64,000 bases of DNA from Streptomyces tailanensis. Lineage in GTDB: Bacteria > Actinomycetota > Actinomycetes > Streptomycetales > Streptomycetaceae. The translations under genes were made by a program, and so were the position numbers. The stretch is from contig NZ_VTHJ01000025.1 in the NCBI RefSeq assembly GCF_008386495.1, positions 1-64,000 of the forward strand, read 5' to 3'. Of the stretch, positions 41,353-64,000 are shown one piece after another. The notes under the pieces were generated by a model. The model saw only the letters and a program-made list of their open reading frames with translations. It had not been told where the DNA came from and ran no database searches. How positions within the stretch are numbered: the first letter of the stretch is position 1; each line of letters opens with the position of its first letter.

Positions 41353-41716
41353 CGTGCTGCTCCTCACGTGTACGGGGAAGGGCGGCGTGGTTCAGGCGTG
41401 GCGGCGGTCAGAGCAGGTCACTGAGGCTGGTGTCGCTCATGGCTCGGATTCCTTGGGTGCTCGGGATGGCTGTGGCGGGCGTGCCCAAGGCGATGCGAGG
41501 GGACCGTGAGCCGTTGTCAATTCGAGCATGACGGAAGCCCGTTGGCGACGTCAACAGGCTTATGTGAATTCCCGACTGGCCGGTGTGTGTACATGTGTTC
41601 GGGTGTCTTGCCCGGAATGGAAATGCGTCGCTCGGCCGACCGATCTACCGAGCCGACCGTCCCTCAGGCGCCTCACCGCCCACGGCTGCTGTCGCCGACC
41701 GGGCAGCGTGTGATGG
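41353..41716. other. 364-base region between minus-strand genes
   Basis: It contains a TTGACA hexamer on the minus strand (41515-41520) with no good -10 partner, and a 10-codon minus-strand frame (ATG 41440, ending SLSDLL) that could be a leader peptide or the tail of a lost gene. Nothing else is supported. Confidence 0.3.
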
Positions 41717-42690: not shown

Positions 42691-42730
42691 TGGAAGCCCG
42701 TTGCCGCGTCGGCGCCGTTAGCCTGTGGGC

Positions 42731-44092
42731 ATGTCGGAGCGTGTCATGCCCGGTCGCACGGACGGCCTGATCACCCTGGGTGCCGCGGACGCTCTGTGGG
42801 TCGATCTGACGGCCGACAGTGCTGTGCCGACGGCTTCTGGGGCATTCACCTGCTCTCCTGCCCATGCCCGGGTGGGGTACGTCCTGCTCGGCGGCCATGT
42901 GGTGGCGACGGTGAGGGCGAGCGGCGGTCAGTGGAGTGTCCCGGAGGGTGAGGTGCGCCGGGCGGCCGCGGAACTGAACGCGGTGGGGATGGACCGGCAG
43001 GACCTGGTCCGCATCGGTCCGTTTCGTGGGGCGCCGAGGCAGGAGTGCGACGAGGAGACGCCGCTGCGTTGGCGCCGGCGCATCACGGGGGAACTGCGGG
43101 AGCTGAGCGGCCCCGAGCGGGCAGCACGACGTGAAGTCGGCCGGCCGTACCATCTGGCGGGGATCGACTGGCGACAGATGCTCGTGGAGCAGACCCGCGA
43201 CGGGACGCAGCGGACGTGGTGGCTGCCGCGCGCCGTGGTCAGGCTGCTCGACGCGGCCGAGCACGCCGAAGCGCGGTGGGTGCAAGCCGCGCGGACCCGC
43301 CGGGCAGGCGCAGCCGCCACCGGGCCGCCCTCCCACCCCCGGCGGGCCCGAGACGCCGACGGTCGGCGAGACGTCGACGGTCGGCAGACGACGAGCCCCG
43401 AGGGTCCCACCGCCTCACCGCGCCCGTACAACGCAGAGCTGGAAGGCCAGCTGTACTCGGTGCTCAGCAGGAAGCCGGGTACCTCCCGCAGGGTGGCCGG
43501 GTGGGCGTGCGCCGTCTGCCGCGGCGCGCCCGCCGCAGTCCTCGACCACTGCCACGAACACGGCTACGTCCGCGCCCCCGTCTGCCAGTCCTGCAACACA
43601 CTGGAACGTCCCGACCACCTGTACAGCAACGACATCCGGGTGGCGAACCGCTACACACGCCTCTTCCACACCGACACCGACGACTGGCTCCGCCACTGGC
43701 ACCGCTGCCCCGGCTGCCGCGCCCGCACCACCCTGCCCCTGCCGCACCTCGCCGCATGGACCGCCCACATAGCCTGCCGATCGCTGCGCCCGACCCATCG
43801 AGCCCCCCGCGGGCGCACACCCTGCGGTGTCCTGCGCGTGTCCTGGACGGGCAGTCAGAACGCGCCCCGTTCCTGCCTGCTCACTGTCGCCGTCGACTGC
43901 TGCCCCTCCGGCGAGCACCGTGTCCTGGCGCGAGTCCCCTACCGAGAAGCCGTCGAGCGGTTTCGCGTCTGGTTGGCCGAGACGGCCCCTGCCGTGGCCG
44001 CCGCGGCCGGTCCTGACCGCGTGGACGGCCTCCCCGCCCAGTCCCGGCCAGTCATCGCGGACACCAGCGGCGAGGGCCTGGCACTGTTCTGA
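42731..44092 (+). CDS. HNH / recombination endonuclease VII-type protein
   Basis: The 453-residue product has a zinc-binding endonuclease VII-type HNH module near residues 257-290: WACAVCRGAPAAVLDHCHEH, then VCQSCNTLE, giving the two CxxC pairs and the DHCH centre. The N-terminal 220 residues include WWLPRAVVRLLDAAEHAEAR and an Arg/Asp-rich linker; the C-terminal part has a further cysteine pair (HRCPGCRARTTLP). Such proteins cut branched or phage DNA, or are stand-alone homing-type nucleases. ATG 42731 is preferred; GTG 42725 is two codons upstream. It has no partner gene nearby. Confidence 0.7.
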   Translation: MSERVMPGRTDGLITLGAADALWVDLTADSAVPTASGAFTCSPAHARVGYVLLGGHVVATVRASGGQWSVPEGEVRRAAAELNAVGMDRQDLVRIGPFRGAPRQECDEETPLRWRRRITGELRELSGPERAARREVGRPYHLAGIDWRQMLVEQTRDGTQRTWWLPRAVVRLLDAAEHAEARWVQAARTRRAGAAATGPPSHPRRARDADGRRDVDGRQTTSPEGPTASPRPYNAELEGQLYSVLSRKPGTSRRVAGWACAVCRGAPAAVLDHCHEHGYVRAPVCQSCNTLERPDHLYSNDIRVANRYTRLFHTDTDDWLRHWHRCPGCRARTTLPLPHLAAWTAHIACRSLRPTHRAPRGRTPCGVLRVSWTGSQNAPRSCLLTVAVDCCPSGEHRVLARVPYREAVERFRVWLAETAPAVAAAAGPDRVDGLPAQSRPVIADTSGEGLALF

Positions 44093-45968: not shown

Positions 45969-46005
45969 GTCCCGGCGGTCGCGTGGTGACGTTCACCGCC
46001 GGGAC
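45969..46005. terminator. bidirectional hairpin between the DUF397 remnant and the GTPase gene
   Basis: GTCCCGGCGGT (45969-45979) pairs perfectly with ACCGCCGGGAC (45995-46005); the loop contains a second short stem. It closes the long minus-strand operon, 15 bases after the last stop. Confidence 0.75.
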
Positions 46006-46019
46006 ACCGGCCCGCCGGG

Positions 46020-47765
46020 TCAGTCGGCGGCAGGCCTGACAAGCTTCTCGGCCTCGTCGCGGAGGCTCTTGATTCCCTCCAACGCTGTTTCACGCTCAGC
46101 GCTGATCTCCGCACCCTGCTTCGTGAGACCGCTGAGCGACTGTTCCACTTCGGCGATCCACTCGCTCAGGTGCTGATCACCGGCGTCAATGAGACTGGTC
46201 CGCTGTCTGCGTGCCGCTTCGTCGAAGTGATCCCTGATCATCTTCCGGTTCTCGTTGATTGCCTTCCACTTGCCCTGGTCCTGCGCGACGCTCTTCAAGT
46301 CCATCAGCGGCCCCATGACCATCAGCGCCCACTGCACCTTGCCGGCCGCGCCGGCGACTTTGCTGGCCGCCTTGCCCTTGCCCCACGGCTTGAACTTGCC
46401 CACGCCGTTGGTGATCTTTCCCCCGGCGTCGAGCACCTTCTGGCCCACTCGGTTCTTGTTGAGCCAGTTCGCGACGTCGGCGGCAGCGCTTCCCTGCTCG
46501 CTACCGCCGGTTGTAACCTTCCCGATCCACTCGTGCATCTTTCTGGCGCCCGCCTTCGCGGCTTTCTCCGCGGCTTCCCTGACCGCACGTGCAAACGGTG
46601 ACTCGTCATCCGAGGGCGCGTCGATCGTCATCTCGGGTGAGTCGAGGTCGTTCACCCAGGCTTCAGGCTCAGGCACACCGGTTCCGTACTCGGCGACCAG
46701 CGCATCGAAAGCTGTCCTCACCGATGAGGAGAACGTGGCGTCGAACTCGGTGTTCGCGCTTACCAGTTCCTCGCTGACGGCACGAGCGAGGTCGACGGGG
46801 ACGACGCCGTCCTTCTCCGAGACGCCGGCGGCGGCTCTGCCTCCCGCCGTTCTGATCTTGGAAGCGACGACCTCGCTCTCCCTCTTCAGGGCGCTCAGCA
46901 CACCCTCCTTCGCCCGGGAGATCGACTCCTCGACCTTCTTCGCCGTCTCCGCGGCGCCGAGTTCCTCGCCGTCCAGTACCCACTTCTGTTCGGCGTCCGT
47001 CAGAACCCGGAGGAGTTCGAATGCCTGCGCCTTGGGACGGACGCCGCTGACACCTGGTGCGATGATTCTCCGCAACTCGGCTGTCAGAACGTCGATACCG
47101 CTCTCCGCGCCAAGCAACTCACGCTGAGCAACCGTGAGGTCGGGGTCATTGGCAGCGTCGACGTAGTCGCGCGCGTCGGTCGGGACGATCGGGACGCGGT
47201 CGGCAAAGGGACCGAGTCGCTTGCGAATCTCATCGAGGATGACGTCGCGATCACTGTTCTCGGCGTTCATCTTGTTGACGACGACCACGCTTCGGTCAGC
47301 GAACCCGTCGGTATCGAGGGCCTGCAGAATCGCCTTGGTCTCCGCTTCGCCTGGTAGTTCGCTCGTTGTCACGATCATCAGCGCGTCCGCACCCCGCACG
47401 CCGCGCCGCGCCGCACTGGAATGTTCGTCGTTGCCTGAAAGCGTCCCGGGCAGGTCGACGAGCGTCACGTCGTTCCACGGGTACGGCGTCGGCTCGTGCG
47501 TCTTGGGCGCCGCGTGGACGAGTTCATCGACAGCGGCCGGCGGGAGCCGGAGCAGTGCCGCGATGAGCATCGACTTCCCCGCACTGTACGGACCCAGGAG
47601 CGCGATCCGCAGCGGGCTCGTGTCCGCATGAGGCAGGCTCGCTGTCAGGCCCCGAGTACGAGGGTGAGCGTTCAGGGCACTCTCAGCCCGTGCGATCAGC
47701 GCGGGTACGAGGGCCTTCAGACCCCCGTCGCTCTCCGACGCGTCCACCGGATTGCCGTCAGTCAT
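46020..47765 (-). CDS. dynamin-like GTPase (second of a pair)
   Basis: The 581-residue product has a large-GTPase core: P-loop IALLGPYSAGKSMLIAALLR at about residues 54-73, switch/G3 VTLVDLPGTLSGNDEHSSA near 100, and VVVVNKMNAENSDRD (G4) near 162. After the G domain come long helices (KKVEESISRAKEGVLSALKR), a weakly hydrophobic stretch (VQWALMVMGPLMDL) and a C-terminal coiled coil (AEVEQSLSGLTKQGAEISAE). The layout fits bacterial dynamin-like proteins such as LeoA of Eleos-type defence. ATG 47765 overlaps the stop of the larger GTPase by eight bases. It is the last gene of the operon and ends before a terminator. A membrane-acting effector is plausible but inferred. Confidence 0.8.
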   Translation of the reverse strand: MTDGNPVDASESDGGLKALVPALIARAESALNAHPRTRGLTASLPHADTSPLRIALLGPYSAGKSMLIAALLRLPPAAVDELVHAAPKTHEPTPYPWNDVTLVDLPGTLSGNDEHSSAARRGVRGADALMIVTTSELPGEAETKAILQALDTDGFADRSVVVVNKMNAENSDRDVILDEIRKRLGPFADRVPIVPTDARDYVDAANDPDLTVAQRELLGAESGIDVLTAELRRIIAPGVSGVRPKAQAFELLRVLTDAEQKWVLDGEELGAAETAKKVEESISRAKEGVLSALKRESEVVASKIRTAGGRAAAGVSEKDGVVPVDLARAVSEELVSANTEFDATFSSSVRTAFDALVAEYGTGVPEPEAWVNDLDSPEMTIDAPSDDESPFARAVREAAEKAAKAGARKMHEWIGKVTTGGSEQGSAAADVANWLNKNRVGQKVLDAGGKITNGVGKFKPWGKGKAASKVAGAAGKVQWALMVMGPLMDLKSVAQDQGKWKAINENRKMIRDHFDEAARRQRTSLIDAGDQHLSEWIAEVEQSLSGLTKQGAEISAERETALEGIKSLRDEAEKLVRPAAD

Positions 47766-50739
47766 CTGCCTTCCCTTCGCTTGCTCCGCGGGTGCTGAGG
47801 CTCCCGGATTCCGAACAGATCTCGATTCGCTCGGTGAGAACATCCACGAATTGGTCCTGTACACACGCCCGCACTTCCGCGATGCGGGATACGTCGGTCC
47901 AGACGCGAAGTTCGACGCCCGGCGTACGGCGTACCCGACGGATCGCCGCCGGGTCCCCGCCCGCAAGGGCCAGTAGTCGGCGTACCAGGACGAGGTCGAT
48001 GGCATCAAGGGCGGACCGCACGGACGACCGCAGCCGACGGACCCGCTCGAACCGTTTCCGTGTGCTCCTGATGTCCGCGGACTGCGCTTCGAACTGGGCG
48101 TCGACTTGAGCCGTCGCGTCATCGACGATTCGAGCCAACTGTGCTTCGACTGTGTCGAACAGCTCATCGAGCCTGGCCTCGGCCGCGGCCGTGGTCTCGC
48201 CAGTCCACTTGTCCTTGGCCTGTCGCAGGCGATCAACCTCACTGCTCACCGCTTTCGCCGCTCCGACCAGGGGGTCCAGCGCGTAGCTCACTGCCACCAC
48301 AGCAGGGTTGGCCGTACTGGCACCCGCAGCGAGTTTCTTGGCGATCCCATGGGCAGCGAAGGAACTCAAGAGGGCTGTCGCCGCCCCCTTGGCAGCCGCC
48401 GCGCTCAGGCTCCCGACCGTCGCGTCAGGACGCGGTCGTACACGCAGGTGCGCGTCGTCCTGCCGCTCCGCGGTGCTTGGCTGCGCGCGCAGAACCCTCT
48501 CCCGTTTCCGCATCTCCTCCTCGAACTCGTCCCCGAGACTCGAGACAAGTCCCTCCAACTCCAGGCCGGTGATGAAGTCGCTCCATCGCTGCGCGTGATC
48601 CACGCCGTCCAGGTCCCGAACCACATCCGGCAACCGCTCCTTGGCATGGTGACGCTTGGCTTCGAGTCGGTCGCGAGTCTTCTGACCCGCGATCCGGAAA
48701 ACATCGAGCAACGCAGCCCGTTGACTCGGCGCCGAGCGTTCGAGTTCGCCGAGCGCGAGACCGATCTGAGGGAGTTCCTCAACCGCCCGGTCGTGGAACG
48801 CGGCGAGCGGCGCCCGCACGCCTTCGGCCAGCCGAACGGCACGAAGCGGAATCGCGCGCTCGGCCAGGAGTTGGGCGAGGGACTGCTCCAGGTCGGGCAA
48901 CCTGCTCGCCCGAAGGGCCCTGTCTCCCAGCTCGCGATCCCCCGTGGACAAGGCTTCGTGCGCGGCACCGGAGTGGACCGCGAGGACGACGGGCGATGCG
49001 ACTCCGACCGCTCTGGAGACCTGCTCGATCCGGACGGCGTGACCCGGCGCCGACGCGAACGCTCTCTCCGGGCGCTGGGCGAAGAGTTGAAGGCGGTCCG
49101 GTGTGTCGACTCGTTCCTTCACGTTGACGACAGCGAGCAGAGGTTTTCCCGAGAGGAGGAGTCGTTGGAGTTCGGATGACTCCTCGTCGCGCAGCGTGTC
49201 GGCGTAGTTCCATATGACCGCGTCGGCGATGTCGCACGCGGCCCGAGCGTGTTGGGCGTCGAGGTCGTCGTCCTTCGCGGCGACGCCGGGCGTGTCGAGG
49301 TAGGTCACGGAGCCGAGCTCGAACGCGGAGGTCTTCCGTGTGGTGCGGTGCGCACCTCGCCCGATCCCGGTTCGGTCCGCGTCACGGGTGAGGGCTTTGC
49401 GGAGCGTGGTCTTCCCGGACTTGGTTCTTCCGGCGATGGCCACGAGAAGCCTGCCTCTCACCGCGGGCATGGCCCGCACGGCATCGCGCAGTTCGCGTTC
49501 GAGCGCCCCGATGTGGCTGATGGCCCCGACGAGATCCTCGCTCTCGATTACGTGCGCGGAGTACGACGTTGGCTGAAGGCGAGCCTCGACCTCGGCCCGG
49601 AGCCTGGACTGAATATCGCGGCAGGCCGATCGGCTCGCGCCCACCGCCCCGGACGGGTGTGCGAATCGGTCGACCAGGAGCTGAAGGGCCTCGCGGAGAT
49701 CTGGTTCGGTTCGCCGCACGTCCATGGCCGCTGCCACGCGGTCGAACAACTCGACGTTTTTCGTGTACCAGGACTCAAACGCTCGCAGCTCGCTGAGGGC
49801 GGTCCGAGAGGCGACCGCCGGCAGCCCCGCCACGAGCCGTGCAGCCGAACTCGTGGCAGGCGCGGCCAGGGACGCGGTCGTGCTCAGGGGCGTCGTCGCG
49901 AGCCCGTGCTCGATCACCGCCCGCGCGCTGTCGTCCGCGAACATGTCCAGAGCGCTCCCCGAAACGGCGCCGGTGTCGCGAGCCTTGATCGCCCACACCA
50001 GGGCATCACACCGATCCGATCTGAACCCCAACCGCCCGTCCGGCCCGAGCCAGCGCCACCACTCCGGTCGCACGGACAGGAGCGCCTCGTACGACTTCTC
50101 CGCGGCGACGAAGTCCCGCACCTTCTCAAGCCGCGTCACCAGATCCCGGTTCCGCAGATCACGAGCTGCCGAGACACTGTGCCTGAGCACGAGCTCACGC
50201 GCATCTGCAGCCTGCCGGGTTCTTCGGCGACGACTCAGGTCGGTCAGCGCGCCTTCGATATCGATCTCACGGATCGAACGCCAGATCTCCTTGGGCCATT
50301 CCTGATCCGCACGACGACACGGCTCAAGGGCTCCAGGCAGTAGCCGTTCCGCGATCGCCACAGCCGCGAGGTCCGCCCGAAGCGCTTCCACCGGCACACC
50401 CTCAAGCGCCTGGAGATGCGACCGTACTCCTTCGAGCCGCATCAACTCCCGGAGGAATCTGGCCCCGTCGGGCGTCAGAGTGCGGCCCCGAGCTGTTGCC
50501 AGGCGGACCAGTTCCTGTTCTTCGACGCACGCCGCCACGGCTTCGGACACCCACCGAAGGGTGCTCCCGGACGGTGGCAGACCGGCACACCCGCACGCTT
50601 GGGCAACCGCGTCCACGTCCTTTGCGAGCCGCTGGAGCGCGGCCGGCCCGGCCGTGGCGTCTACACCCAATGGCTCGAGCAGCAGGGCCAACATCTCGCC
50701 TCTGAGACTCGTCCTGTCATTCACTGCCGTGTCATTCAC
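47758..50739 (-). CDS. large dynamin-like GTPase (first of a pair)
   Basis: The 993-residue product has about 400 residues of helical N-terminus (ALQRLAKDVDAVAQACGC; RRRRTRQAADARELVLRHSV) followed by a GTPase domain: P-loop LLVAIAGRTKSGKTTLRKAL near residue 433, G3 VTYLDTPGVAAKDDDLD near 478, and LLAVVNVKERVDTPDRLQ (G4-like NVKE rather than NKxD) near 530. Helical stalk segments follow, with a hydrophobic hairpin near 773-815 (AAAKGAATALLSSFAAHGIA; PAVVAVSYALDPLVG) that could insert in membrane. The start is GTG 50739 (or GTG 50742, overlapping the TAG stop of the Hsp70 gene), preceded by GAGGAG. The two GTPases overlap and probably act together. Confidence 0.78.
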   Translation of the reverse strand: MNDTAVNDRTSLRGEMLALLLEPLGVDATAGPAALQRLAKDVDAVAQACGCAGLPPSGSTLRWVSEAVAACVEEQELVRLATARGRTLTPDGARFLRELMRLEGVRSHLQALEGVPVEALRADLAAVAIAERLLPGALEPCRRADQEWPKEIWRSIREIDIEGALTDLSRRRRTRQAADARELVLRHSVSAARDLRNRDLVTRLEKVRDFVAAEKSYEALLSVRPEWWRWLGPDGRLGFRSDRCDALVWAIKARDTGAVSGSALDMFADDSARAVIEHGLATTPLSTTASLAAPATSSAARLVAGLPAVASRTALSELRAFESWYTKNVELFDRVAAAMDVRRTEPDLREALQLLVDRFAHPSGAVGASRSACRDIQSRLRAEVEARLQPTSYSAHVIESEDLVGAISHIGALERELRDAVRAMPAVRGRLLVAIAGRTKSGKTTLRKALTRDADRTGIGRGAHRTTRKTSAFELGSVTYLDTPGVAAKDDDLDAQHARAACDIADAVIWNYADTLRDEESSELQRLLLSGKPLLAVVNVKERVDTPDRLQLFAQRPERAFASAPGHAVRIEQVSRAVGVASPVVLAVHSGAAHEALSTGDRELGDRALRASRLPDLEQSLAQLLAERAIPLRAVRLAEGVRAPLAAFHDRAVEELPQIGLALGELERSAPSQRAALLDVFRIAGQKTRDRLEAKRHHAKERLPDVVRDLDGVDHAQRWSDFITGLELEGLVSSLGDEFEEEMRKRERVLRAQPSTAERQDDAHLRVRPRPDATVGSLSAAAAKGAATALLSSFAAHGIAKKLAAGASTANPAVVAVSYALDPLVGAAKAVSSEVDRLRQAKDKWTGETTAAAEARLDELFDTVEAQLARIVDDATAQVDAQFEAQSADIRSTRKRFERVRRLRSSVRSALDAIDLVLVRRLLALAGGDPAAIRRVRRTPGVELRVWTDVSRIAEVRACVQDQFVDVLTERIEICSESGSLSTRGASEGKADD

Positions 50740-50741
50740 CA

Positions 50742-52838
50742 CTACTCCTCGTGGGGGCGGTGGTATCTGAACTCGGGGAGCGGGCCGGGGCTCGGGGGAA
50801 TCAAGGCCCGGGACTGCTGAGGCACCTCCGCTCGTACGATCCGGTGGCGAGGCAGTACGCAGGTGCGCGGTGTGAAAACCCACATACCTTGCGACAAAGT
50901 GACCCCGAGCACTCGTTCCTTGTCCCGCAACCAGGGATATCTGTTCTGCAACTCGACATAGTTGTCGTTGGTGACGACGGTTCCGCCGGTGTCCTCTGCG
51001 ATTGCCGTGACAAGCGCATCGCCCTTGCCCTCGGTTCCGGCCGGAGGCTGGATGAGATCGCCTTTGCTGAGCGCCGCATCCACAGCCGCACGTTCTTCCT
51101 CCGCGACCTTGTGCCTGAAGGTGGCGTCGACGACCACGTGGAGCATGGCGTCGGGGTACTTCGATGTCAGGGCGTCGCGCGCGGACAGCAGTTGAGCGTA
51201 GGACGGTCGGTCGTCGCTGCCGTACACACCAGGTTGCCGCGGCGACCTGCCGATCCACGCCAGGTTGGAGCCGTCTACCACGAGCGCCGCAGGCGCTGAA
51301 CCCGTGGCTCGCTTCCGAGCCGACGCCGACAGCGGCCTGGTGACCGTGTTGCCAGCGAGCAGATCATTGAGTTCCTTGCGAACCGCCGGCGTCGGACCAC
51401 CAGAGCTGAAACTCTTGATCTCCTCGTTCAGTACCTCCTCGCCGGTGCGTTCAAGGGTCGCCTTGACGTGCAGGAGCCCGTTCGTGTCGTACGTGTACTC
51501 CAGCAGGAAGCGGGAGTCCTCACGAGCCCGGGGGTCCCGATAGGTGAGTCGGAGGTCTGTCAACTTCACGTTGTCGGGGTGGTCCAGAGGCCGGTCCGGG
51601 TCACCCTCCCAGATCTCCACGGTGAGACTGCTGGCGTTGTCCAGGCGCGGTGTGTAGTTCTTGCGCTCCTTCCACGGCAGCGGTGAGTTGCGCGGAATGA
51701 TCTGACTGAACTTCCGCTGGCCGGTGTCGTCTGTGACGACCGTACCCAGGGCATGGCTTGTCGCCACCTGGATCACGCCGTCAGCCTCCCCCGACAGCAC
51801 AGCTGCCGCAATGGAGGCACCGCGGGCGACCGCCGTCATGGGATCGCACACGCCGACCTCGACAGGCTGCTGCTGCATGACCTCGGCGACCGCCATCCGG
51901 ACGCTCGGGATCTGACTGGTGCCGCCAATCATCAGCACCGCGTCCACGTCCAGAGGTGCCATATGCAGGTCGGTGAGGCACTGCTGGACCGGTGCGAGGG
52001 CGCGGTCCACGAGGTCGGTGATGGCGTCCTCCAGCTCCTCCTGCCACACCTCGACGGTGTCACCGTCCGGAGTCCTGACGGTGACGGAGTCCTCGGAGGA
52101 CAGACGGATCTTGCTGCGCTCCACGTCCAGCCCGAACTGCCGCTCCTGCGCAGGCGTCCACGCCGATCGCGCCGGAGCCCGTTCGAGGACGAGGTCACGC
52201 AGACGACGGTCGATCTCCAGACCGCCAAGCTCGGTTACACCCCGTGACGCAAGCTCCTCGAAGAACCCGTCCTGGTAGTCGAGCACGGTGACGTCGATCG
52301 TGCCGCCACCCCAGTCGAAGACCAAGATGGTGCGGGCTTCTTGTAGCTCGTGCACGTACGAGATCGCGGCTGCCGTCGGTTCGTTGAGCAGCGCCAGGAC
52401 GTCGATGCCCGCGAACTGCGCTGCGGCGCGCGTGCGATAGCGCGCGGCGCCCGTGGCGTTGGCGGGCACGGTGATCACGGCCTGGTCGATGGCGGTGAGG
52501 TTGTGCTCCGCGCCCTTCCGCATGGCCTGGAAGACACCGGCGGCCACCGTCGTGGCCGCGAACCTGCGGCCGTGAATCGTGACGTACTCGTCGCTCTTGA
52601 GGAGTCTTTTGCAGGCCTCGGCCGCCTCTTCGGAGCGGAGCTTGGCCTCCCAGCCGAACAACGCCCCCCGACGCAGCGAACTCATGCCCACCACCGACGG
52701 GAAGAGGTACTCGAAGCCGGGATGGCGCCAGTCGGCGTCGATGTGGTGGGCGTCCAGTAGCAGTACGTCAGCGTCGGCGCCCAGCCACTGGGCCACCACG
52801 GAGTTGGTGGTGCCGAAATCGATCCCGGTGGCGGTCAC
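50742..52838 (-). CDS. Hsp70 (DnaK-like) chaperone fused to a C-terminal NYN/PIN-type ribonuclease domain
   Basis: The 698-residue protein starts with a complete Hsp70 ATPase: GIDFGTTNSVVAQWLG, AVITVPANATGAARYRTRAA, NEPTAAAISYVHE, LVFDWGGGTIDVTVLD and MIGGTSQIPSVR. A short substrate-binding beta domain follows (IIPRNSPLPWKERKNYTPR; GLLHVKATLERTGEE), to about residue 475. The helical lid is missing. Instead, from about 516, there is a nuclease-like domain: ALVVDGSNLAWIG, MLHVVVDATFRHKVAEEE, GKGDALVTAIAEDTGG and TVVTNDNYVELQ, which carry the acidic positions (D, N, D, D) of the Zc3h12a/NYN and PIN RNases. This fusion is unusual. ATG 52838 overlaps the GrpE-like gene by four bases, and the stop overlaps the GTPase start. 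Confidence 0.85.
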   Translation of the reverse strand: MTATGIDFGTTNSVVAQWLGADADVLLLDAHHIDADWRHPGFEYLFPSVVGMSSLRRGALFGWEAKLRSEEAAEACKRLLKSDEYVTIHGRRFAATTVAAGVFQAMRKGAEHNLTAIDQAVITVPANATGAARYRTRAAAQFAGIDVLALLNEPTAAAISYVHELQEARTILVFDWGGGTIDVTVLDYQDGFFEELASRGVTELGGLEIDRRLRDLVLERAPARSAWTPAQERQFGLDVERSKIRLSSEDSVTVRTPDGDTVEVWQEELEDAITDLVDRALAPVQQCLTDLHMAPLDVDAVLMIGGTSQIPSVRMAVAEVMQQQPVEVGVCDPMTAVARGASIAAAVLSGEADGVIQVATSHALGTVVTDDTGQRKFSQIIPRNSPLPWKERKNYTPRLDNASSLTVEIWEGDPDRPLDHPDNVKLTDLRLTYRDPRAREDSRFLLEYTYDTNGLLHVKATLERTGEEVLNEEIKSFSSGGPTPAVRKELNDLLAGNTVTRPLSASARKRATGSAPAALVVDGSNLAWIGRSPRQPGVYGSDDRPSYAQLLSARDALTSKYPDAMLHVVVDATFRHKVAEEERAAVDAALSKGDLIQPPAGTEGKGDALVTAIAEDTGGTVVTNDNYVELQNRYPWLRDKERVLGVTLSQGMWVFTPRTCVLPRHRIVRAEVPQQSRALIPPSPGPLPEFRYHRPHEE

Positions 52839-53449
52839 ACGCCCTCCCCGTTCGACGCCTCGTCGTCCCCGGCAGAGTGGTCTCCTCCGCCGGGCCCGGG
52901 CAGGCGGCGCAGTTGTCCGGAGAGCACCAGCTTGCCGGTGGCCTGGTCCACGTAGGCCGGGCGCAGCACCTCGAACGCCTCACCATCGCCTTCCACCACC
53001 ACGAAGAGCTCGCTTTCGCCGTCGGGTGAGTCCACGCACCGCACGCCTTGGTCCAGCAAGGCAGTACGGATGCCCTTCCGAAGCGAACTGGCACTCTGGT
53101 TGGGCGCGCCGGCGAGCAGATCGACCTCGACCATCCGGGCCACGTACTCCTCCCTGGAGCGAAACGCCTCCAGTACGGCCTGGCGCAAGGCAGCCGTCAC
53201 AGCGGCCTGTGTGGGTCGCTCCTCTTCCGGGACAGCGGTCAGGAGGCCGGTCGCCCGCTCGGCGAAACGGGAGAGCAGTATGTGAGGGCTGAGTAGCTCC
53301 TCGGGGCGGTAGGTGCGAGGGGAGTCCTTGGGGACATCGGCCGCCGCCCGCTGCTTCTCCCGACGATGTTTGAGGCCGTTGTTCCCCTTGGGGGTAATGC
53401 GCTTGGGGGCCGCTGTGGTCTTCCGCTGGCTGCGGGGCACCTTTTTCAC
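52835..53449 (-). CDS. small protein encoded before Hsp70, possibly a GrpE-like exchange factor
   Basis: The 204-residue product has a very basic N-terminus (KKVPRSQRKTTAAPKRITPK), a helical middle (VTAALRQAVLEAFRSREEYV) and a beta-rich C-terminus (LLDQGVRCVDSPDGESELFV; EVLRPAYVDQATGKLVLSGQ). The helix-then-beta layout with GV at the start of the beta part and an LRPA-V motif recalls GrpE, the Hsp70 nucleotide exchange factor, and the position next to Hsp70 supports it. Sequence similarity is too weak to be sure. GTG 53449 overlaps the upstream stop by four bases. Confidence 0.5.
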   Translation of the reverse strand: MKKVPRSQRKTTAAPKRITPKGNNGLKHRREKQRAAADVPKDSPRTYRPEELLSPHILLSRFAERATGLLTAVPEEERPTQAAVTAALRQAVLEAFRSREEYVARMVEVDLLAGAPNQSASSLRKGIRTALLDQGVRCVDSPDGESELFVVVEGDGEAFEVLRPAYVDQATGKLVLSGQLRRLPGPGGGDHSAGDDEASNGEGV

Positions 53450-55100
53450 TGTGTGTGCATCCTTGCGTTGCGATCGGGGCGCCGGGGGGTGCTGAGCAGG
53501 TGGGGCAGCAGATCCGCCACCGCTCGCTGCCGCACGAGCCCGAGGCCTTCGGGAGAGTGAGGGATCGTTCGCCTGGTCAGCGGGGCCAGGGGCGGGATCA
53601 GCGTGACCGGCACCTCGTCCGGAAGCTCGAACACGTCCGCGTCGAGCGGTAGCACGAAGAAGCCGGACGAGTCCTCGTCGCGTTCGGCGTCTCTGATGCG
53701 TTTCATCGCGCTGTTGAGCCGCGCGCTCATGTCCACGTCGTGCACATGCTCCCGGCGGAGGTCCCGGTACCGGGTCTCCCAGCTCGGCGCGCCGTGCGGT
53801 AGCCCGAGGTCCAGATAGGGGTTGGACGCTGCCGGTCTGTCGTTACGGGGAACCGTCCGACGCTGCTCGACCATGCGGAGGTTGGACTCGGCCAGCTCGA
53901 GCGATCCGCTGATCCCCTTCAGGACGACGGCCGCCGCGTTCAGTTCCTCCCGGAGAAACAGCGTGTACGCATGGAAGTTGAGCGCCTCGGCCCGGTAGGC
54001 CGGATCAGCGGTCTCGAACGACACCAGCTTGTCTATCTGGGACGACGCACGGGCGAGGTCGTTCAGGCACAGCAGGTCGTAGGCCTGACGCAGGGCCATG
54101 AGCGCGTGCAGGGGTGACCGCGACGGGTTGACGGCTGCCTTGGGTTCCCACAGAGAGAAAATGAGCCGCCACAGCCCCCTGTCCTCCCATATGTCCCGGT
54201 CCCAGTTGCCGACATCGACCCCGTCCAGAAGCCGGCGCAGCCGGAGCACCAGATCGCGGGGCAGCTTCCTTTCGAGCTCCTTCACCACCGAAGCGTCGCC
54301 GTCGGCAACTCGCTCCAAGAGGTCGTAGACGTCGCCGACCGAGGGCAGCGGCTCGCCCCCGGCGAGAAACGCGTTCCGCCGCTGCCGGGCCGTCCACTCC
54401 AGCGCAGTTGCCTGCTCGGCGGTTACCTGATCGGGAACCAGCCGGGCTTTGAGGTACGCGTGCTCCGGCTCATCGGCCCGGTACTGCCAGGGCTGATGCT
54501 CGGGGCCGACCGCTCCGGTGTCAATGAGATCGTCGAGGACGCTCAGCGGTATCCAGGGAAGCACACGCGGCAGCATCCGAGGCGGGAAGGTGGCCGTACC
54601 ATCCGTCGCGAGCGCCGAGAGGAGGGCGAAGGCCCCGGAGGGGGCCTCGCTCCCGGAGGCGGCGAGCGTGTCGTCGCCCGCTGTCAGGGCGGTGAGCCGT
54701 TGCTCCCCGACCTCGGTCAGCCATAGGAAGCCGCCCGCGTGGACCGCCGTAAGTGCCGCGGCGACCGTGGCTGGGTCGGCTCGTTCGAGGACGGTCCGCA
54801 CAGCAGGCAGCAGCCGGTCGTCCGGTTCGTCGCGCAGGGCGTCGGCCAGGGCGTCGTGCGTCGCGTCCTGTGTGAGGGATACGAGTTGTTGGAGCAGAGC
54901 GTGGGCCTGCAGTACCGCCTGGGCTCCGAACACCCCCACCTTCCGCCACCTGCGTACGGTGAACCCGTCGACCCCCGCGTCCGCACTCTGGGCGTCGCGG
55001 CGCTCCCTGAGCGCCCTCAGCCGCTCCCGCTCCCGTGCGACCGCCTCGGCCCGTGCCCCCGACACCGGCTGCCCCGCCCCGCCGGCCGACGGCGGACTCG

Positions 55101-55104
<4 letters not shown>
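53446..55104 (-). CDS. uncharacterised helical protein with a degenerate C-terminal J-like domain
   Basis: The 552-residue product is largely helical (RERERLRALRERRDAQSADA; VLQAHALLQQLVSLTQDATH; AYDLLCLNDLARASSQIDKL), with a TPR-like stretch near residues 330-400 (EALNFHAYTLFLREELNAAA). At about 428-480, NPYLDLGLPHGAPSWETRYR, DLRREHVHDVDMSARLN and SAMKRIRDAERDE follow the pattern of a DnaJ J-domain (YxxLG, YRxLRxxxHPD, AxxxIxxA), but the HPD triad reads as VHD. It lies two genes before an Hsp70 and is coupled to its neighbours by GTGA overlaps on both sides, which supports a co-chaperone or adaptor role. GTG 55104 is the start. Confidence 0.6.
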
Positions 55105-59134
<4,030 letters not shown>

Positions 59135-59135
<1 letters not shown>

Positions 59136-62113
59136 CAGGCGGACACTCCAGTGGCAACGGCCCCAGTAGCAACGGCCCCAGTAGCAACGGCCGGGGCTGC
59201 GGCAGGGGCGGCGGGCAGGTACACGTACGCGCCGAGGATGTCGGCGGGCTTCTGCACGGTGACGGACAGGCCACGCACGATCTCACCGGAGGCCTGGCGA
59301 ACCCGGCGGTGGGAGGCATCCAGCTCGGCGGCCAACTCCTCGCCGTACGTCTCCAAATGGCCGTACACATCGGGGAGTTGGGTGAGCAGACGGGTCATCG
59401 TGCGCTCGCCGAAGTGGCGGTCCGTGCTCTCGGACGCCGTCGCGTCGAGCAGGTCCCGGGCCCGCTTCGGCGGCAGCCACTCCGCCTTCCTCGCGGAGCC
59501 TTCGAAGGCGATCAGCCGCGCGTCCTCCGCGACCACCTGCTTCTCGCCGCTGCGCGAGGGCAGCGTGAGGTGGAAGCGGTAACGGACGAGGAGGAGGGTC
59601 GTGAGGGTGCCGACCGCGTCCGTCGTGACCACGCCGCAGCGCCGCGCCGGGCGGGCGCCGTCCGCCTGGGTGTCCAGGGCGGCGTTCAGGACGTGGGACG
59701 CGAGGGCGCCCACGACCGGGTCCGTCCGGACGAGGGCCGCCTCGCCCCTCGCCACCGCCGGGTTCGCGCGGAACGGGATCGGGCGGTCCTTCTCGATCAC
59801 CTCCGCGCCGACCGTCGGCGCGAGCGCGTCCCGCAGGCCGATGGGCGTGCCGCCCACCTGGGCCGTGAAGTCCTCGCCGTCGCCGCGGAGGACGGCACCG
59901 AGGGCGCCCAGTGACTCCCGTACGAACGTGTCGATCTCGTCCGCGCCGCCCAGAGCCTCCCGGACTGCCGCGACCTCGCGGGCCACCTCCTGCGGACGCA
60001 CGGAACGCTGCGCGAATCGCGAACGCGACGCCTTCTCGCGCTCGGCCGCGGAGTTCCAGTCGCTGTCCAGCTTCGCCGTGCTCACCTTGAACGCGTCCGC
60101 GCTGAAGAGCGCGTCCTCGTCCTCGCGCCCCCGCATCAGCAGCCACTCGACGATCGCGTCCGTCACGCCCGTCGACAGTTCGTCGGGGACGGAGACGGAG
60201 ATGCCGAGGTCCTTCTTGATCTGGCGGTGCTTCTTGATGAGGACTTCGAGGACCTTGCCGTCGATGCCGTTGTCGTCGCCGTACAGGGTGATGACGCGGA
60301 CCTGGTCCTTGCGCTGGCCGTAGCGGTCGACGCGGCCCTCGCGCTGGTCGTGACGGGTCGGGTTCCAGGCCAGGTCGTAGTGGACGACGGCGTCGAAGTG
60401 GTGCTGGAGGTTCACGCCCTCCGACAGACAGTCCGTCGCGATCAGGACGCGGCGGGCGGCGGCGTCCTCGCCGGCCTCCTCGGCGAGCTTCTCGATGCGC
60501 TCCAGGCGCTGCTGCGGGGAGAGCGTGCCGGTGACCGCCTTCACGACGGTCTTGGCGCCGAGCGGGCCGCGCCTGCCGGACTCCTTGTCGTTCTCCAACT
60601 GGGCGGCGAGGTACTCGGCCGTCGGGATGTAGCGGCAGAACACGATCGGGTTGTGGCCGTCCGCGAGGAGCGCCTTGAGGTGCTTGATCAGCGCCTTGAG
60701 CTTGAGGTCCTTGGCCGGGCCTTCCAACTGCTCGGCGATGTCGGCGAGTTCGGCGAGGTAGGAGCGTGGGTCCTCGGTCGTCTCCGCGCCCGGTGCGACG
60801 TCCATGCCCTCCATCGCGTCACTGTCGGCGGCGTCGCTGTTGAGCGGGGCGCCCAGCTTGTCGGCCTCCTCCGCCGACGCGGCGATCGCCGCCGCCGAAC
60901 GCGTCCGCAGCGTCTGCGCGGCGGCGCGCGGCGACGACACCAGGGAGCGGAGCAGCGCGATCGCCGACCACCAGGCGATGCGCGCCTCCCGCTTGCCCTG
61001 GCTGCCCGCCTGCTCGACGCGCTCACTCGCGTACGCGATCGCGTCGTCGAGCAGGGCCCGGTACTCCGGCGACAGCTTGTACGTCTCGTCCTTGAAGTAA
61101 CGGTCCGAGGGGAACGCGGTCCGCTCCGCGAGGGAGTCGTCGGTGAGACCGTCCTCCTTGGTGAGGTACTGGCGTACGTCGGCCCGCTTGCGCGCCACGA
61201 AGTGCTGGGCGAGGAGCTTCCTGCCCGCCTCCGAATCCAGGCTCACGTCGGCCAGTTCGGGCTTGACCAGGCCGAGGAGGTTGCGGAACGCGGACTCCTT
61301 GCCGCTGTGCGGGGTCGCCGTCACGAGCAGCAGGTGCCGGGTCTCGTCCTGCGAGACGCGGCGCAGCAGCTCGTAGCGGAGCTGGTTCTGCGAAGCCGTG
61401 GAGGTGTCGTCGGCGACCACGCAGGTGTGGGCCTCGTCGACGATCACGAGGTCGGGGCAGTGGCGTACGAAGTCGTCCCGGTGGCGCGGGGACTTGATGA
61501 AGTCCGTCGAGACGATCACGTGTGGGTACTTGTCGAAGAGGGACTGGCCCAGGTCCAGGCCCCGTTCGAGGCGCGAGACCGTCGAGGAGAGGACCAGCTC
61601 CGCGTCGATGCCGAACTTCGTGCGCAGCTCCTGCTGCCACTGCTCGGCGAGCGCGGGGGAGCAGAGGACTGCCAGGCCGGTCGCCTCGCCCTGCGCGAGG
61701 AGTTCGCTCGCGACCAGGCCCGCCTCGATCGTCTTGCCGATGCCGACGTCGTCCGAGATCAGCATGCGGACCGTCTTCTGCCGCAGGGCCATCAGCAGTG
61801 GAACCAGCTGATACGCGCGCGGCTCCACCGCGATCCCGGCCAGCGAGCGGAACGGGCCCGCGCCCGAGCGGAAGCCGACGCGCAGCGCCGTACGCAGCAG
61901 GCCTGCCGCCCGCTGGTCACCGAGGTCGCTCGGCTCCGGCGGCGCGAACTTCGCCTCGTCCACCGTCTCGAACGCCGGGAACACGGCAGCGATGTCGTCG
62001 TCCGAGCCGCCCAGCGGACGCAGGACGAGCAGATCGGGCTTGCTCTCGGGGAGCACGACCCATTCCCGGCCGCGGGCCTTCACCAGGGAACCGGCGGAGT
62101 ACGTGAGTGCCAT
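59135..62113 (-). CDS. SNF2-like helicase, class 1 DISARM DrmD-like
   Basis: The 992-residue protein is an SF2 helicase of SNF2/RapA type: Q-motif region EPRAYQLVPLLMALRQ, P-loop ISDDVGIGKTIEAGLVASEL near residue 117, LVIVDEAHTCVV near 222, LLLVTATPHSGKESAFRNLL near 262, and the second RecA lobe with IVFCRYIPTAEYLAAQLEND, ATDCLSEGVNLQHHFDAVVH and NPTRHDQREGRVDRYGQ. The C-terminal third is helical. The last residues repeat Ala-Val-Ala-Thr-Gly, encoded by a 15-bp tandem repeat. DrmD proteins translocate on DNA in class 1 DISARM. It precedes the methylase with a one-base overlap. Confidence 0.87.
59148..59192 (-). repeat. 15-bp tandem repeat (3 copies) at the end of the SNF2 helicase gene
   Basis: Units CCAGTRGCAACGGCC at 59148-59162, 59163-59177 and 59178-59192 (plus strand) differ at one base. 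They encode a short Ala/Val/Thr/Gly tail in frame, so copy number can vary without disrupting the gene or the overlapping methylase start. Confidence 0.85.
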
Positions 62114-62168
62114 GTGAGTCTTCGAGTCCTCGTGTTGGGTCCGACCGGATGGTGGATGGGGCGGGCGG

Positions 62169-64000
62169 TCAGTTGGCGGCCGGAGAGCCGAAGTAGCGGG
62201 AGTTGGCGGCGGCGACGGCGTCCCAGTCGACGTCGTGCGCGAAGCGGATGACGTCCCAGCGGGCGTTGAACAGGCGGTCCTCGGCGTCCTCGTCCCGGAA
62301 GGTGTCCTGCTCCTTGTCCGGTAGGTCTACGAAGACCGCTACGTTCACGCCGGGCAGGCGGTACACGTAGTCGGGGGTCGCCATCGCCTCGGTGAGGAAC
62401 GAGCCCGGTTCGTCCGGCAGCCGCAGGCCGCGCGCCTTCGCCCAGCCAAGGAAGTCGCCCTGAGCGGCCAGCTCGGCCGCCGATGCCTCGACCGGTGTCG
62501 GCTCGGCGGGGTCGGGGTCGGGGTCGGGGTCGGGGGAGACCTGGTCGAGCAGTCGCCGGTACTGCTCCGAGCGCGACTCGCCGCGCGACTCCCGCCGGGC
62601 CGTCGCCGACGCGAGCCGCACCAGCAGGTCCCGCACCGAGTGGCGGTTGATGAGCGCGTGGTTGAGCTGGTTGCCGTAGGTCAGCAGGCACTCGTAGCAG
62701 CCGAGCGCGCACGGCCGGTCCGGGTGCGGGCCGCCCTGGTCGGTGCCGTCCGCGGCGAAGTGGCAGATGTCCAGGGCGCGTACGGCCGCCTTCGCCAGGG
62801 CGTCGGGCTCGGCCTGGAGGCGGCGCAGCACACCCGCCCCGCCCTCGGCGGCCTCCGTGAACAGGATGCGGTTGCGGGGGCCGTCGTCCGGCGGCAGCAG
62901 CTCGCTGGACAGTTCGGCGTCCTCCAGCTCGAACGCGGCCTCGATGCCCCGTTCCAGGGCGTACATCAAGGAGAGCGCCACCGGCTCCGGCAGCGGCTCG
63001 TCGAGGGTGACGACGAGGATGTTGCGGCGGTCCTCCACGTACGGGATGACCCGCTTCTTGCGGCGTCGCTCATTGCCGTCCGAGTCGATCACGGGCAGCT
63101 CGCTGGAGTCGCCGGACGCCTCTGACGCGTCCTTGTCGTTCATCCAGCGGCCGTCCGCGAGGTCCAGCCAGTACCCGGCCGGCTCGTCGCTCTTGGCGCG
63201 CACCCGCCCGATGTTGGTGATGCGGACTGTCGCCGAGTCGCCGTACGCCACGTCGGCGAGCGGCGCGCCCGAGGCGTCGGTGACCGCCGCGTTCAGGCGG
63301 CCCTTGCGGGTGCCGTGGTCCTGGAAGCGGTACGACGTCTCCAGCTTGAAGCCGGCGCGGCGCCGCTCCTCCTCGTCGGAGGAGATCCGCTCACGGCGGG
63401 TGGTGTACACGGTGTGCAGGTGCAGCAGGCCGTACGTCGCCGCGCCCAGCGGCTCGTGGCACATGGCGCAGCGGTCCTCCAACTGCTCCGGATCGTGGTG
63501 GTAGCCGCAACTCGCGCAGCGGCGGGCCTCGCTGGTCGCCAGCTCGCCCGAGGAGTCCGGTGGCAGCTGGATGCGGGTCACCTGGTAGCGGGCGCCCTCG
63601 TGGTAGATCAGCGCACCGGGGCCGAACTCGCGGATCGCGAGGAAGCGCGGGCGCTGGAGGTAGTCGCCGTCCCCGCGGCGGCGGCCGACGGTCGGGATGT
63701 ACGCGGCGAGCGGGAGCCGCGGGAAGCTGTAGCCGGGCAGGAAGCCCTCGGATGCCAGATAGCGGTACGGGTTGAAGTCGGAGAGGACCGACTTGCTGTC
63801 GACGCTCTCGTTCATCAACAGGTTCAGTTGTGTCTCGGCCTCACGGCGGCGGGCGTTGGCACGGATGCGGTCGCCCTCGGTGAGGCTGTAGTCGAGGCGG
63901 CGCCTGTTCTGGATGTACTGGTCGTCGAGGGCGGAGCGGAACAGTTGCCGCCAGCGGTCGAAGGCCCGGTCGAAGCGGGTCGCCACGGTCCGCACACGGT
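62169..64000 (-). CDS. C-terminal part of a DUF1998-containing helicase (DrmA/DrmB-like), cut by the window edge
   Basis: About 610 residues are present and the frame is open to the last base, so the N-terminal helicase lobes lie outside. The visible part contains RRRLDYSLTEGDRIRANARR, YLQRPRFLAIREFGPGALIY, a zinc knuckle (CASCGYHHDPEQLEDRCAMC), and a DUF1998 region with ILFTEAAEGGAGVLRRLQ and the cysteine/His signature CALGCYECLLTYGNQLNH. The final 110 residues resemble a nuclease-like tail (VYRLPGVNVAVFVDLPDKEQ). DUF1998 proteins are the hallmark of DISARM (DrmB) and Druantia. It is first in the visible part of the operon, 55 bases before the SNF2 helicase. Confidence 0.75.
   Translation of the reverse strand, partial: RVRTVATRFDRAFDRWRQLFRSALDDQYIQNRRRLDYSLTEGDRIRANARRREAETQLNLLMNESVDSKSVLSDFNPYRYLASEGFLPGYSFPRLPLAAYIPTVGRRRGDGDYLQRPRFLAIREFGPGALIYHEGARYQVTRIQLPPDSSGELATSEARRCASCGYHHDPEQLEDRCAMCHEPLGAATYGLLHLHTVYTTRRERISSDEEERRRAGFKLETSYRFQDHGTRKGRLNAAVTDASGAPLADVAYGDSATVRITNIGRVRAKSDEPAGYWLDLADGRWMNDKDASEASGDSSELPVIDSDGNERRRKKRVIPYVEDRRNILVVTLDEPLPEPVALSLMYALERGIEAAFELEDAELSSELLPPDDGPRNRILFTEAAEGGAGVLRRLQAEPDALAKAAVRALDICHFAADGTDQGGPHPDRPCALGCYECLLTYGNQLNHALINRHSVRDLLVRLASATARRESRGESRSEQYRRLLDQVSPDPDPDPDPAEPTPVEASAAELAAQGDFLGWAKARGLRLPDEPGSFLTEAMATPDYVYRLPGVNVAVFVDLPDKEQDTFRDEDAEDRLFNARWDVIRFAHDVDWDAVAAANSRYFGSPAAN
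62508..62531 (-). repeat. hexanucleotide repeat GGGGTC x4 in the DUF1998 gene
   Basis: Four perfect units encode an in-frame Asp-Pro repeat linker between the DUF1998 region and the C-terminal tail. Length changes would not shift the frame. Confidence 0.8.

What the first reader, a model, noticed from the sequence alone, without database searches (positions are those of the whole stretch)
46020..64000. A DISARM-like modification/helicase set joined to an Hsp70-nuclease, co-chaperone-like and dual dynamin-like GTPase module
Seen directly: eight minus-strand genes from 64000 to 46020. Every gene from the SNF2 helicase onward overlaps or abuts its neighbour (TGATG, GTGA, GTGA, ATGA, TAGTG, 8-bp overlap), so they are translationally coupled, and a terminator closes the unit. 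Known families: DUF1998 helicase, SNF2 helicase and Eco57I-type adenine methylase are the core of class 1 DISARM; paired dynamin-like GTPases occur in Eleos-type defence. I know of no described system that couples these to an Hsp70 fused to a NYN-like nuclease, with J-like and GrpE-like neighbours. Inference: the helicase/methylase part recognises invading DNA, and the chaperone-nuclease-GTPase part is an abortive effector or a folding-controlled switch.
Basis: partly seen in the sequence, partly recalled or inferred. Interest (0 to 1): 0.92.

Follow-up and report, generated by a model that had tools for sequence, protein, structure and literature searches.

The report
Portable chaperone-nuclease cassette in defence operon
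A Streptomyces chromosome carries an operon that joins a kinase-helicase-methylase set and a pair of dynamin-like GTPases to a miniature Hsp70/J/GrpE-like chaperone machine whose Hsp70 bears an RNase-like domain; the same three-gene chaperone machine is found beside several different antiviral gene sets, so chaperones may be working there as infection sensors or switches.

Summary
Eight tightly packed genes run on the minus strand; the first continues past the window to contig position 68495 and is a Ser/Thr kinase fused to a DruE-like helicase. The block is three separable modules: (1) kinase-helicase, SNF2 helicase, adenine methylase; (2) a degenerate J-like protein, a GrpE-fold protein and an Hsp70 with a C-terminal NYN nuclease domain; (3) two LeoA/LeoBC-like GTPases. 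Module 2 is the real find. Of 42 genomes with the J-like gene, 41 have the Hsp70 in the same stretch, but the neighbours change: Druantia type IV in 12, the kinase-helicase core in 8, a type I methylase somewhere in the fetched stretch in 15, an SF1 helicase in 3; 12 have none of these or the GTPases. Six Hsp70 ATPase residues are invariant in 40 of 40; the four nuclease aspartates are intact in 23, decayed in 3, lost in 14, including all 12 Druantia-linked copies (one clade). So the chaperone part is what is kept and the nuclease is optional. It is not DISARM by curated cut-offs. I found no description of this cassette in the papers searched. Function is inferred from sequence, predicted fold and context only.

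The parts
62169..64000 (-). C-terminal part of KinHel (continues to contig position 68495; 2108 aa in all): Ser/Thr kinase + DEAD helicase + Helicase_C + MrfA-type Zn-binding (MZB) region, DruE-like
   Evidence: Whole protein: Pfam Pkinase 155 bits, DEAD 96, Helicase_C 50, MZB 38; PADLOC DruE3 342 bits; HRDLKPAN and DFG present
59135..62113 (-). SNF2-family helicase, 992 aa
   Evidence: Pfam; PADLOC model labelled DpdE 1948 bits, DrmD 283; NCBIfam DrmD 314 of cut-off 610
55101..59135 (-). Eco57I-type adenine methylase, 1344 aa
   Evidence: Pfam Eco57I 56.8 bits; PADLOC DrmMI 223 bits
53446..55104 (-). J-like protein, 552 aa: all-helical model, TPR-like middle (weak), degenerate J domain at residues 428-476 (about 53677-53823) without HPD
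   Evidence: hhalign of segment 421-490 to 17 J domains E 4.8e-4, probability 32%; seven other segments E 0.14 or more; HPD in 0 of 44 rows; model pLDDT 86
52835..53449 (-). GrpE-like protein, 204 aa (helical, then beta domain)
   Evidence: VIA-align on the predicted model: top five rows all GrpE, Z 8.2-9.5, next row 5.5; no sequence match
50742..52838 (-). Hsp70 (ATPase and beta substrate-binding part) fused to a NYN/Zc3h12a-type nuclease domain at residues 515-666 (about 50841-51296)
   Evidence: Pfam; profile to ZC3H12B E 1.8e-4 and KHNYN 4.5e-4; D522, D571, D607, D625 and the ATPase residues
47758..50742 (-). GTPase B, dynamin-like (LeoBC-like), 994 aa if it starts at the GTG of TAGTG (50742), 993 if at the next GTG
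   Evidence: PADLOC LeoBC 131 bits; MMR_HSR1 33 bits; junction
46020..47765 (-). GTPase A, dynamin-like (LeoA-like), 581 aa
   Evidence: PADLOC LeoA 165 bits; MMR_HSR1 31.3 (cut-off 21.9) and Dynamin_N 27.8 (cut-off 27)
45969..46006 (-). G+C-rich hairpin after the last gene, no T run; possible end of the unit
   Evidence: fold; terminator scan negative

Best explanation
The operon is a composite antiviral locus made of three exchangeable modules. The DNA-handling core (kinase-helicase, SNF2 helicase, adenine methylase) marks self DNA and attacks unmarked DNA, as DISARM- or Druantia-like sets are thought to. The three-gene chaperone cassette is a dedicated Hsp70 cycle: the J-like helical protein selects a client (a phage protein, or a component of the partner system), Hsp70 binds it in an ATP-dependent way, and the GrpE-like protein resets it. 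The client-bound or nucleotide state is then read out. Where the C-terminal NYN domain is intact, it gates RNA cleavage and stops the infected cell; where the cassette is wired to Druantia type IV, it gates the Druantia helicase and the nuclease has been lost. The GTPase pair is a further optional, probably membrane-acting, arm. Shown here: composition, gene order, coupling, conserved catalytic residues, fixed trio with changing partners, nuclease loss in the Druantia clade. Inferred: antiviral role, identity of the client, direction of control, RNA as the target.
For: The trio is together in nearly all genomes found: Hsp70 in 41 of 42 stretches with the J-like gene, and all three in 40 of 40 named loci, a sample that overlaps the first. 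Partners are defence genes: Druantia IV (DruF 348, DruL 307, DruE 2175 bits) in 12 of 42, kinase-helicase core in 8, type I methylase in 15, SF1 helicase in 3. In two Druantia loci whose frames I read (G295, G195) the helicase stop and the J start share one base by my frame calls. Core and trio lie side by side in 8 of 13 genomes that hold both, in three arrangements. On the Hsp70 tree the core label needs 4 changes, at least 3 forced by well supported branches. ATPase residues D7, K66, E153, D175, T180 and D182 in 40 of 40; nuclease aspartates intact in 23, decayed in 3, lost in 14. GrpE fold and degenerate J domain. Kinase and methylase motifs present (DPACGSG, NPPW; HRDLKPAN, DFG; meaning of the motifs recalled). 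Precedent that a J protein can mediate phage sensing: DnaJ and bNACHT25, PMC12169576 (abstract and outline read).
Against: No experiment shows defence by any of these genes. The J-like protein lacks HPD in all 44 rows, so it cannot be assumed to stimulate Hsp70 in the usual way, and the J profile match has only 32% probability. Twelve of the 42 stretches (one of them G301, a fragment; some short contigs) have no recognised partner by my thresholds, and five of 13 genomes hold core and trio apart. The GrpE assignment has no sequence support, the model is moderate (pLDDT 72, pTM 0.52), Foldseek alone gives E 0.18 and another GrpE chain scores only Z 3.6. The nuclease loss is one event in one clade. 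Neighbourhood in defence islands can arise without functional coupling.
Confidence: 0.5

Rival explanations
1. The trio is an independent, self-sufficient toxin-like defence system (Hsp70-NYN as abortive RNase, J-like and GrpE-like as controls) that merely lodges in defence islands; its neighbours are unrelated passengers.
For: Several loci hold the trio without a recognised partner (for example G221, G240, G336). The nuclease residues are intact in 23 of 28 Hsp70s outside the Druantia clade. Three loci lost the helicase core but kept trio and GTPases (in one of them, L116, J-like and Hsp70 frames are short).
Against: In 12 of 12 Druantia-linked copies the nuclease is gone while the six ATPase residues stay. 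Start/stop overlaps couple the trio to DruE (G295, G195) and to the methylase. Core and trio are adjacent in 8 of 13 genomes with both, against about 0.4% per genome for random placement.
Confidence: 0.25
2. The trio is a helper that folds or stabilises large helicase proteins of the partner systems; it has no sensing role.
For: Partners are often very large helicases (about 1200 to 2100 aa) and the cassette looks like an Hsp70/J/GrpE set.
Against: The same core is found without the trio in most genomes (47 of 60 with SNF2 lack the J-like gene), including five whose SNF2 is 96-97% identical to the window's. A pure folding helper does not explain the nuclease domain.
Confidence: 0.15
3. Chance or island-level juxtaposition of three unrelated mobile units.
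For: All three modules also occur apart. On the methylase tree the trio label is as scattered as shuffled labels (6 changes, shuffled mean 6.5, 216 of 500 shuffles as low; 7 of 26 rows).
Against: Repeated core-trio adjacency, overlaps or abutments at all six junctions from SNF2 to GTPase A, and a single Druantia-trio clade of 12 genomes in two families.
Confidence: 0.1

Closest known systems
Druantia type IV (PADLOC models DruE4/DruF4/DruL4)
   Same: DruE-like helicase; in 12 related stretches DruF and DruE lie directly upstream of the J-GrpE-Hsp70 trio, with DruL between them where a frame was called
   Different: The window shows no DruF or DruL; its DruE-like helicase carries a kinase and is followed by SNF2 and a methylase. 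Trio proteins from the window and from a Druantia locus have no PADLOC match beyond a weak Csx1 hit to the window's NYN part.
DISARM class 1
   Same: SNF2 helicase like DrmD, Eco57I-type methylase like DrmMI, helicase with an MZB (DUF1998-type, recalled) region
   Different: DrmD curated cut-off missed by half; no PLD domain (DrmC, recalled) in the eight proteins by Pfam; kinase fusion
GAP1-N2 DO-GTPase conflict systems with HSP70, GrpE and DnaJ (Kaur et al. 2020, PMC7159879; passages read)
   Same: Actinobacterial conflict systems that include HSP70, GrpE and a DnaJ domain
   Different: There the core is DO-GTPase plus GAP1 with FNIII proteins; no such family appears in the Pfam scans of the eight proteins. 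The passages read mention no NYN fusion, Druantia or SNF2/methylase core.
CoCoNuT type III and NxD McrB systems with Hsp70-like domains (PMC11090510; section 11 and passages read)
   Same: Hsp70-like protein next to restriction systems, suggested role in RNA targeting
   Different: Those Hsp70s are fused to or encoded with McrB/McrC, and the authors think the CnuD type hydrolyses ATP poorly; here six ATPase residues are invariant, no McrB/McrC domain is seen by Pfam, and the nuclease is NYN
Eleos / LeoABC dynamin-like GTPases (PMC4159319, listing seen; that Eleos is the LeoA/LeoBC system is recalled)
   Same: Two adjacent dynamin-like GTPases matching LeoA and LeoBC
   Different: NCBIfam LeoA cut-off 325, score 38.6; embedded in a larger operon
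DnaJ-dependent sensing by bNACHT25 (PMC12169576, abstract and outline read)
   Same: A J protein links phage infection to a defence effector
   Different: Uses the host's housekeeping DnaJ; here a private J-like/GrpE-like/Hsp70 set is encoded in the locus

Membership tests
DISARM | DrmD SNF2 helicase over the curated NCBIfam cut-off | tested here: not met
   314.2 bits against 610 (NF038317); 128.6 against 950 (NF038318)
DISARM | DrmC phospholipase-D protein beside separate DrmA and DrmB (definition recalled) | tested here: not met
   No PLD domain by Pfam in the eight proteins; one fused kinase-helicase whose best helicase label is DruE
Druantia | DruE helicase | tested here: inconclusive
   342 bits to DruE3 over part of the protein, no curated cut-off in PADLOC
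Druantia | Type-specific partner genes (DruF, DruL and so on) | tested here: not met
   None for the window's eight proteins in the rows shown (lists capped at 25 for the helicases and methylase); DruE and DruF present in 12 related stretches
Dpd | DpdE over the curated cut-off, with the Dpd set | tested here: not met
   174 bits against 500; no other Dpd gene as best label in the operon. A PADLOC model named DpdE gives 1948 bits over the whole protein, so that label is probably inherited from this helicase family (inference).
Eleos (LeoA/LeoBC) | LeoA subfamily model over its cut-off | tested here: not met
   38.6 bits against 325; PADLOC LeoA 165 and LeoBC 131 bits without cut-off
Housekeeping DnaK | DnaK equivalog cut-off | tested here: not met
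   223.7 against 648 and 219.3 against 822.55; the genome has two other strong DnaK places, 807 and 745 bits
J-domain protein | HPD motif | tested here: not met
   0 of 44 J-like rows
J-domain protein | J-domain sequence profile | tested here: inconclusive
   hhalign E 4.8e-4, probability 32%, register of helices I-II and HPD loop; controls E 0.14 or more; no Pfam match
GrpE | GrpE fold | tested here: met
   Predicted model only: five GrpE entries on top, Z 8.2-9.5, 87-110 residues aligned, rmsd 3.0-6.5; next 5.5. Foldseek alone E 0.18, GrpE first.
GrpE | Sequence match (PF01025) | tested here: not met
   No Pfam match; hhalign to the genome's own GrpE E 0.19 and 0.028
NYN/Zc3h12a RNase | Four conserved aspartates (which ones: recalled from Regnase-1) | tested here: met
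   D522, D571, D607, D625 in 23 of 40 Hsp70s, window included
CoCoNuT / McrBC | McrB GTPase and McrC DUF2357 | tested here: not met
   No such Pfam match in the eight proteins

The most novel reading that the evidence does not exclude
A private Hsp70 cycle is used by bacteria as an infection sensor: a degenerate J protein hands a phage or host client to an Hsp70 that carries an RNase where a lid would be expected, so that a chaperone conformational cycle directly switches a nuclease; the same sensing head has been plugged into Druantia IV and other helicase systems, where the RNase became dispensable.
Probability: 0.3. Interest if true: 0.88.

Novelty: new variant of a known kind. Interest (0 to 1): 0.74.

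Why it matters
Chaperones have been proposed as components of bacterial conflict systems, and one host J protein has been shown to mediate phage sensing, but I know of no portable three-gene Hsp70/J/GrpE-like cassette shared between Druantia and other helicase systems. If the cassette senses or gates, the question of how Druantia and DISARM-like helicases are switched on becomes directly testable with a small genetic module. The graded loss of the nuclease (intact, decayed, vestigial, gone) gives a natural experiment on sensor against effector function.

Tried and rejected
Rejected: class 1 DISARM as a label. Rejected: one fixed eight-gene system, because the core and the GTPase pair occur apart from the trio. 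Dropped: 'Hypnos', an Hsp70 defence system half-remembered; the searches gave nothing usable.

Led nowhere: profile search of J-like and GrpE-like alignments against PDB sequences (for J-like only designed Pizza proteins came under E 0.001, over 39 residues, which I take as chance); GrpE profile comparison; J-like gene on plasmids (no match); Hsp70 in phages (35 records, none covering 80% of the query; the J-like gene was not searched there); Foldseek for the J-like model (no E under 0.001). In one search no row reached Z 8; TPR proteins led, P58(IPK) among them, so the TPR label is weak, and the J domain was not picked out by fold.

Limits. How common Druantia IV is without the trio could not be measured (searches failed), so the 12 Druantia cases are counted from the trio side only. 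The Hsp70 and methylase trees are quick trees (SH-aLRT only). In the Hsp70 tree G613, G371, G002, G479 and G336 have long branches, and G002 is one of the three places where the core appears. The methylase tree uses open frames with overhangs (G002's row is 2353 aa) and lacks G160. Gains and losses are not told apart. Gene calls around loci are my own GC-frame calls. The J domains used are the 17 of 30 loci that a script pattern with HPD picked out. Stubs in L116, L120 and L121 were read from translations and tblastn. Type I RM 'near' means within the fetched 20-31 kb, not in the same operon. The chance figure assumes a 30-kb target in 8 Mb and no relatedness.
Full report
What is there. The window ends inside the first gene. 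Reading on along the contig gives a 2108-aa protein, window 62169 to contig position 68495: Ser/Thr kinase (155 bits), DEAD helicase, Helicase_C and MZB region, with HRDLKPAN and DFG. PADLOC labels the helicase DruE (342 bits to DruE3, 293 to DruE1) and the kinase PD-T4-6. The next recognisable genes upstream, on the same strand but more than 1 kb away, are metabolic (oxidoreductase, short-chain dehydrogenase, PhyH), so the operon probably starts at the kinase-helicase. Then follow an SNF2 helicase, an Eco57I-type methylase, and five further genes down to 46020. All six junctions from SNF2 on overlap or abut.

What the five downstream proteins are. The Hsp70 matches Pfam HSP70 up to about residue 469; beyond about residue 515 it has a NYN domain where a lid would be expected. 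Pfam gives the NYN domain 24.2 bits against a cut-off of 23, and a profile of 15 relatives matches ZC3H12B, ZC3H12C and KHNYN (best E 1.8e-4; the single sequence alone only E 0.38). The 204-aa protein has no sequence match, but its model (pLDDT 72) aligns best to GrpE: five entries at Z 8.2-9.5, the next at 5.5. The 552-aa protein is all helical (pLDDT 86). Its residues 421-490 align to 17 actinobacterial J domains at E 4.8e-4 (probability 32%) in the right register, while seven other segments give E 0.14 or worse; HPD is absent in all 44 rows. The last two are dynamin-like GTPases matching LeoBC and LeoA.

The trio is a fixed unit. The J-like gene occurs in 36 of 343 genomes of the order, 10 of 394 of the class (6 of them new) and 2 of 396 of the phylum (both already counted). 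I fetched stretches around all 42 (the window). By the BLAST thresholds, Hsp70 is present in 41, J in 38, GrpE-like in 36; profiles add GrpE-like in G613 and G416, so it was not seen in G371, G430, G434 and G301. The one locus without Hsp70 is G301, a J fragment with a stop. Where all three were seen the order is J, GrpE-like, Hsp70; in G416 a further gene of 137 aa after Hsp70 matches the J profile, so the J-like protein seems split there. A scan of named genomes gave 40 loci, Streptomyces and Actinacidiphila apart from one titled only Actinobacteria bacterium, all 40 with the trio; this sample overlaps the first.

The partners change. Within the fetched 7.6-38 kb: Druantia IV (DruE and DruF) in 12 of 42 (one of them, G479, in another family); kinase-helicase with SNF2 in 8; type I methylase in 15 (HsdR passes in 7); SF1 helicase in 3; GTPase pair in 6. 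Thirty of 42 have at least one of these; twelve have none. The core is upstream in the same operon (G000, G192, G222, G176, G061), downstream on the same strand (G330, G160) or on the other strand (G002). Of 13 genomes with both core SNF2 and J-like gene, 8 have them side by side; random placement would give about 0.4% per genome (relatedness not corrected). On the Hsp70 tree the core label needs 4 changes, at least 3 on well supported branches, and Druantia is one clade. On the methylase tree the trio label needs 6 changes, at least 5 forced, for 7 of 26 rows, no fewer than shuffled labels, so the cassette moves in and out of the core. Of 20 core loci whose downstream side I fetched, none has the trio there; in G330 it lies upstream of the core, in G067 and G258 elsewhere, and the other 17 genomes have no J-like gene. 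After the methylase, some of these carry genes such as EcsC and PASTA proteins. L116, L120 and L121 keep trio and GTPases but only stubs of the kinase-helicase (L116 and L120 also of the methylase end). GTPase A is in 10 of 343 genomes, 6 beside the trio, one of the other four a fragment.

The nuclease is optional, the ATPase is not. In 40 Hsp70s the residues D7, K66, E153, D175, T180 and D182 are invariant and shared with the genome's two DnaK proteins (that these are catalytic is recalled from DnaK). All four NYN aspartates are present in 23; G180, G335 and G190 keep a decayed domain (D, G, gap, E); all 12 Druantia-linked copies and G416 and G430 lack it, the Druantia copies that I looked at (G295, G195, G268, G479) ending in a short VNG remnant where the first strand would be. 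Because the Druantia copies are one clade, this is one loss, not twelve.

How it probably works. The constant part is a chaperone cycle, so the likely common task is to bind a client and report it. With an intact NYN domain the report could be RNA cleavage; with Druantia it could be control of the helicase. The HPD-less J domain suggests that it docks or delivers rather than drives hydrolysis. The kinase-helicase core probably has its own discrimination and attack functions. A host J protein is known to mediate phage sensing (PMC12169576, abstract and outline). All functional steps are inference.

Literature. Searches held: Hsp70 with dynamin and DISARM, with LeoA, with NYN domain and conflict systems, with Druantia (only the CoCoNuT paper and its preprint), kinase with DUF1998 and SNF2, Streptomyces defence with Druantia, kinase and chaperone, Eleos and LeoA. 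I read passages and section 11 of PMC11090510, passages of PMC7159879 and passages and outline of PMC12839542 ('Hsp70' occurs 0 times in its main text). None of what I read describes this cassette. Subscription papers are mostly missing from the library, and the tool says that bioRxiv preprints are not held as such.

Noticed in passing
window 39715-41367: Protein with a PADLOC HEC-07 match (81 bits) and a weaker NsnC match (34 bits), a few kb beyond the operon: possibly another defence gene.
   Followed up: no
window 42725-44092: Frame with a recombination endonuclease VII domain (35 bits) between the operon and the HEC-07-like gene.
   Followed up: no
L116:9544-9924, L120:9615-9983, L121:9735-9923: Stubs of the kinase-helicase N-terminus, followed in L116 and L120 by the methylase C-terminus; left ends at roughly residues 50-70 of the kinase, right ends different: the core seems to have been deleted more than once.
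   Followed up: partly
L157:11026-14761, L156:5171-8503, L159:5256-6506: Core loci without the trio carry other genes right after the methylase: EcsC-family, PASTA-domain, and families without Pfam match (about 740-820 aa and 416 aa): a variable cargo position.
   Followed up: partly
L173:3843-6716: A 957-aa protein 33% like the distant Hsp70s, downstream of the core in G330, so a second Hsp70-like gene near the trio.
   Followed up: no
own genome C132:52085-53236 (L004, L007): A further divergent Hsp70 in a 1049-aa open frame elsewhere in the same genome.
   Followed up: no
L112:12154-16053: CHAT-NACHT-TPR protein after the trio in G190, whose NYN domain is decayed.
   Followed up: no
L107 and L069: Type I RM with two HsdM genes, HsdS, HsdR and a DndB-like gene lies next to several trios, perhaps a shared defence hotspot.
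   Followed up: partly
L187/L188 (G305): A 112-aa frame 76% like the methylase lies about 4 kb upstream of a GTPase B/A pair with no trio: another possible trace of module exchange.
   Followed up: no
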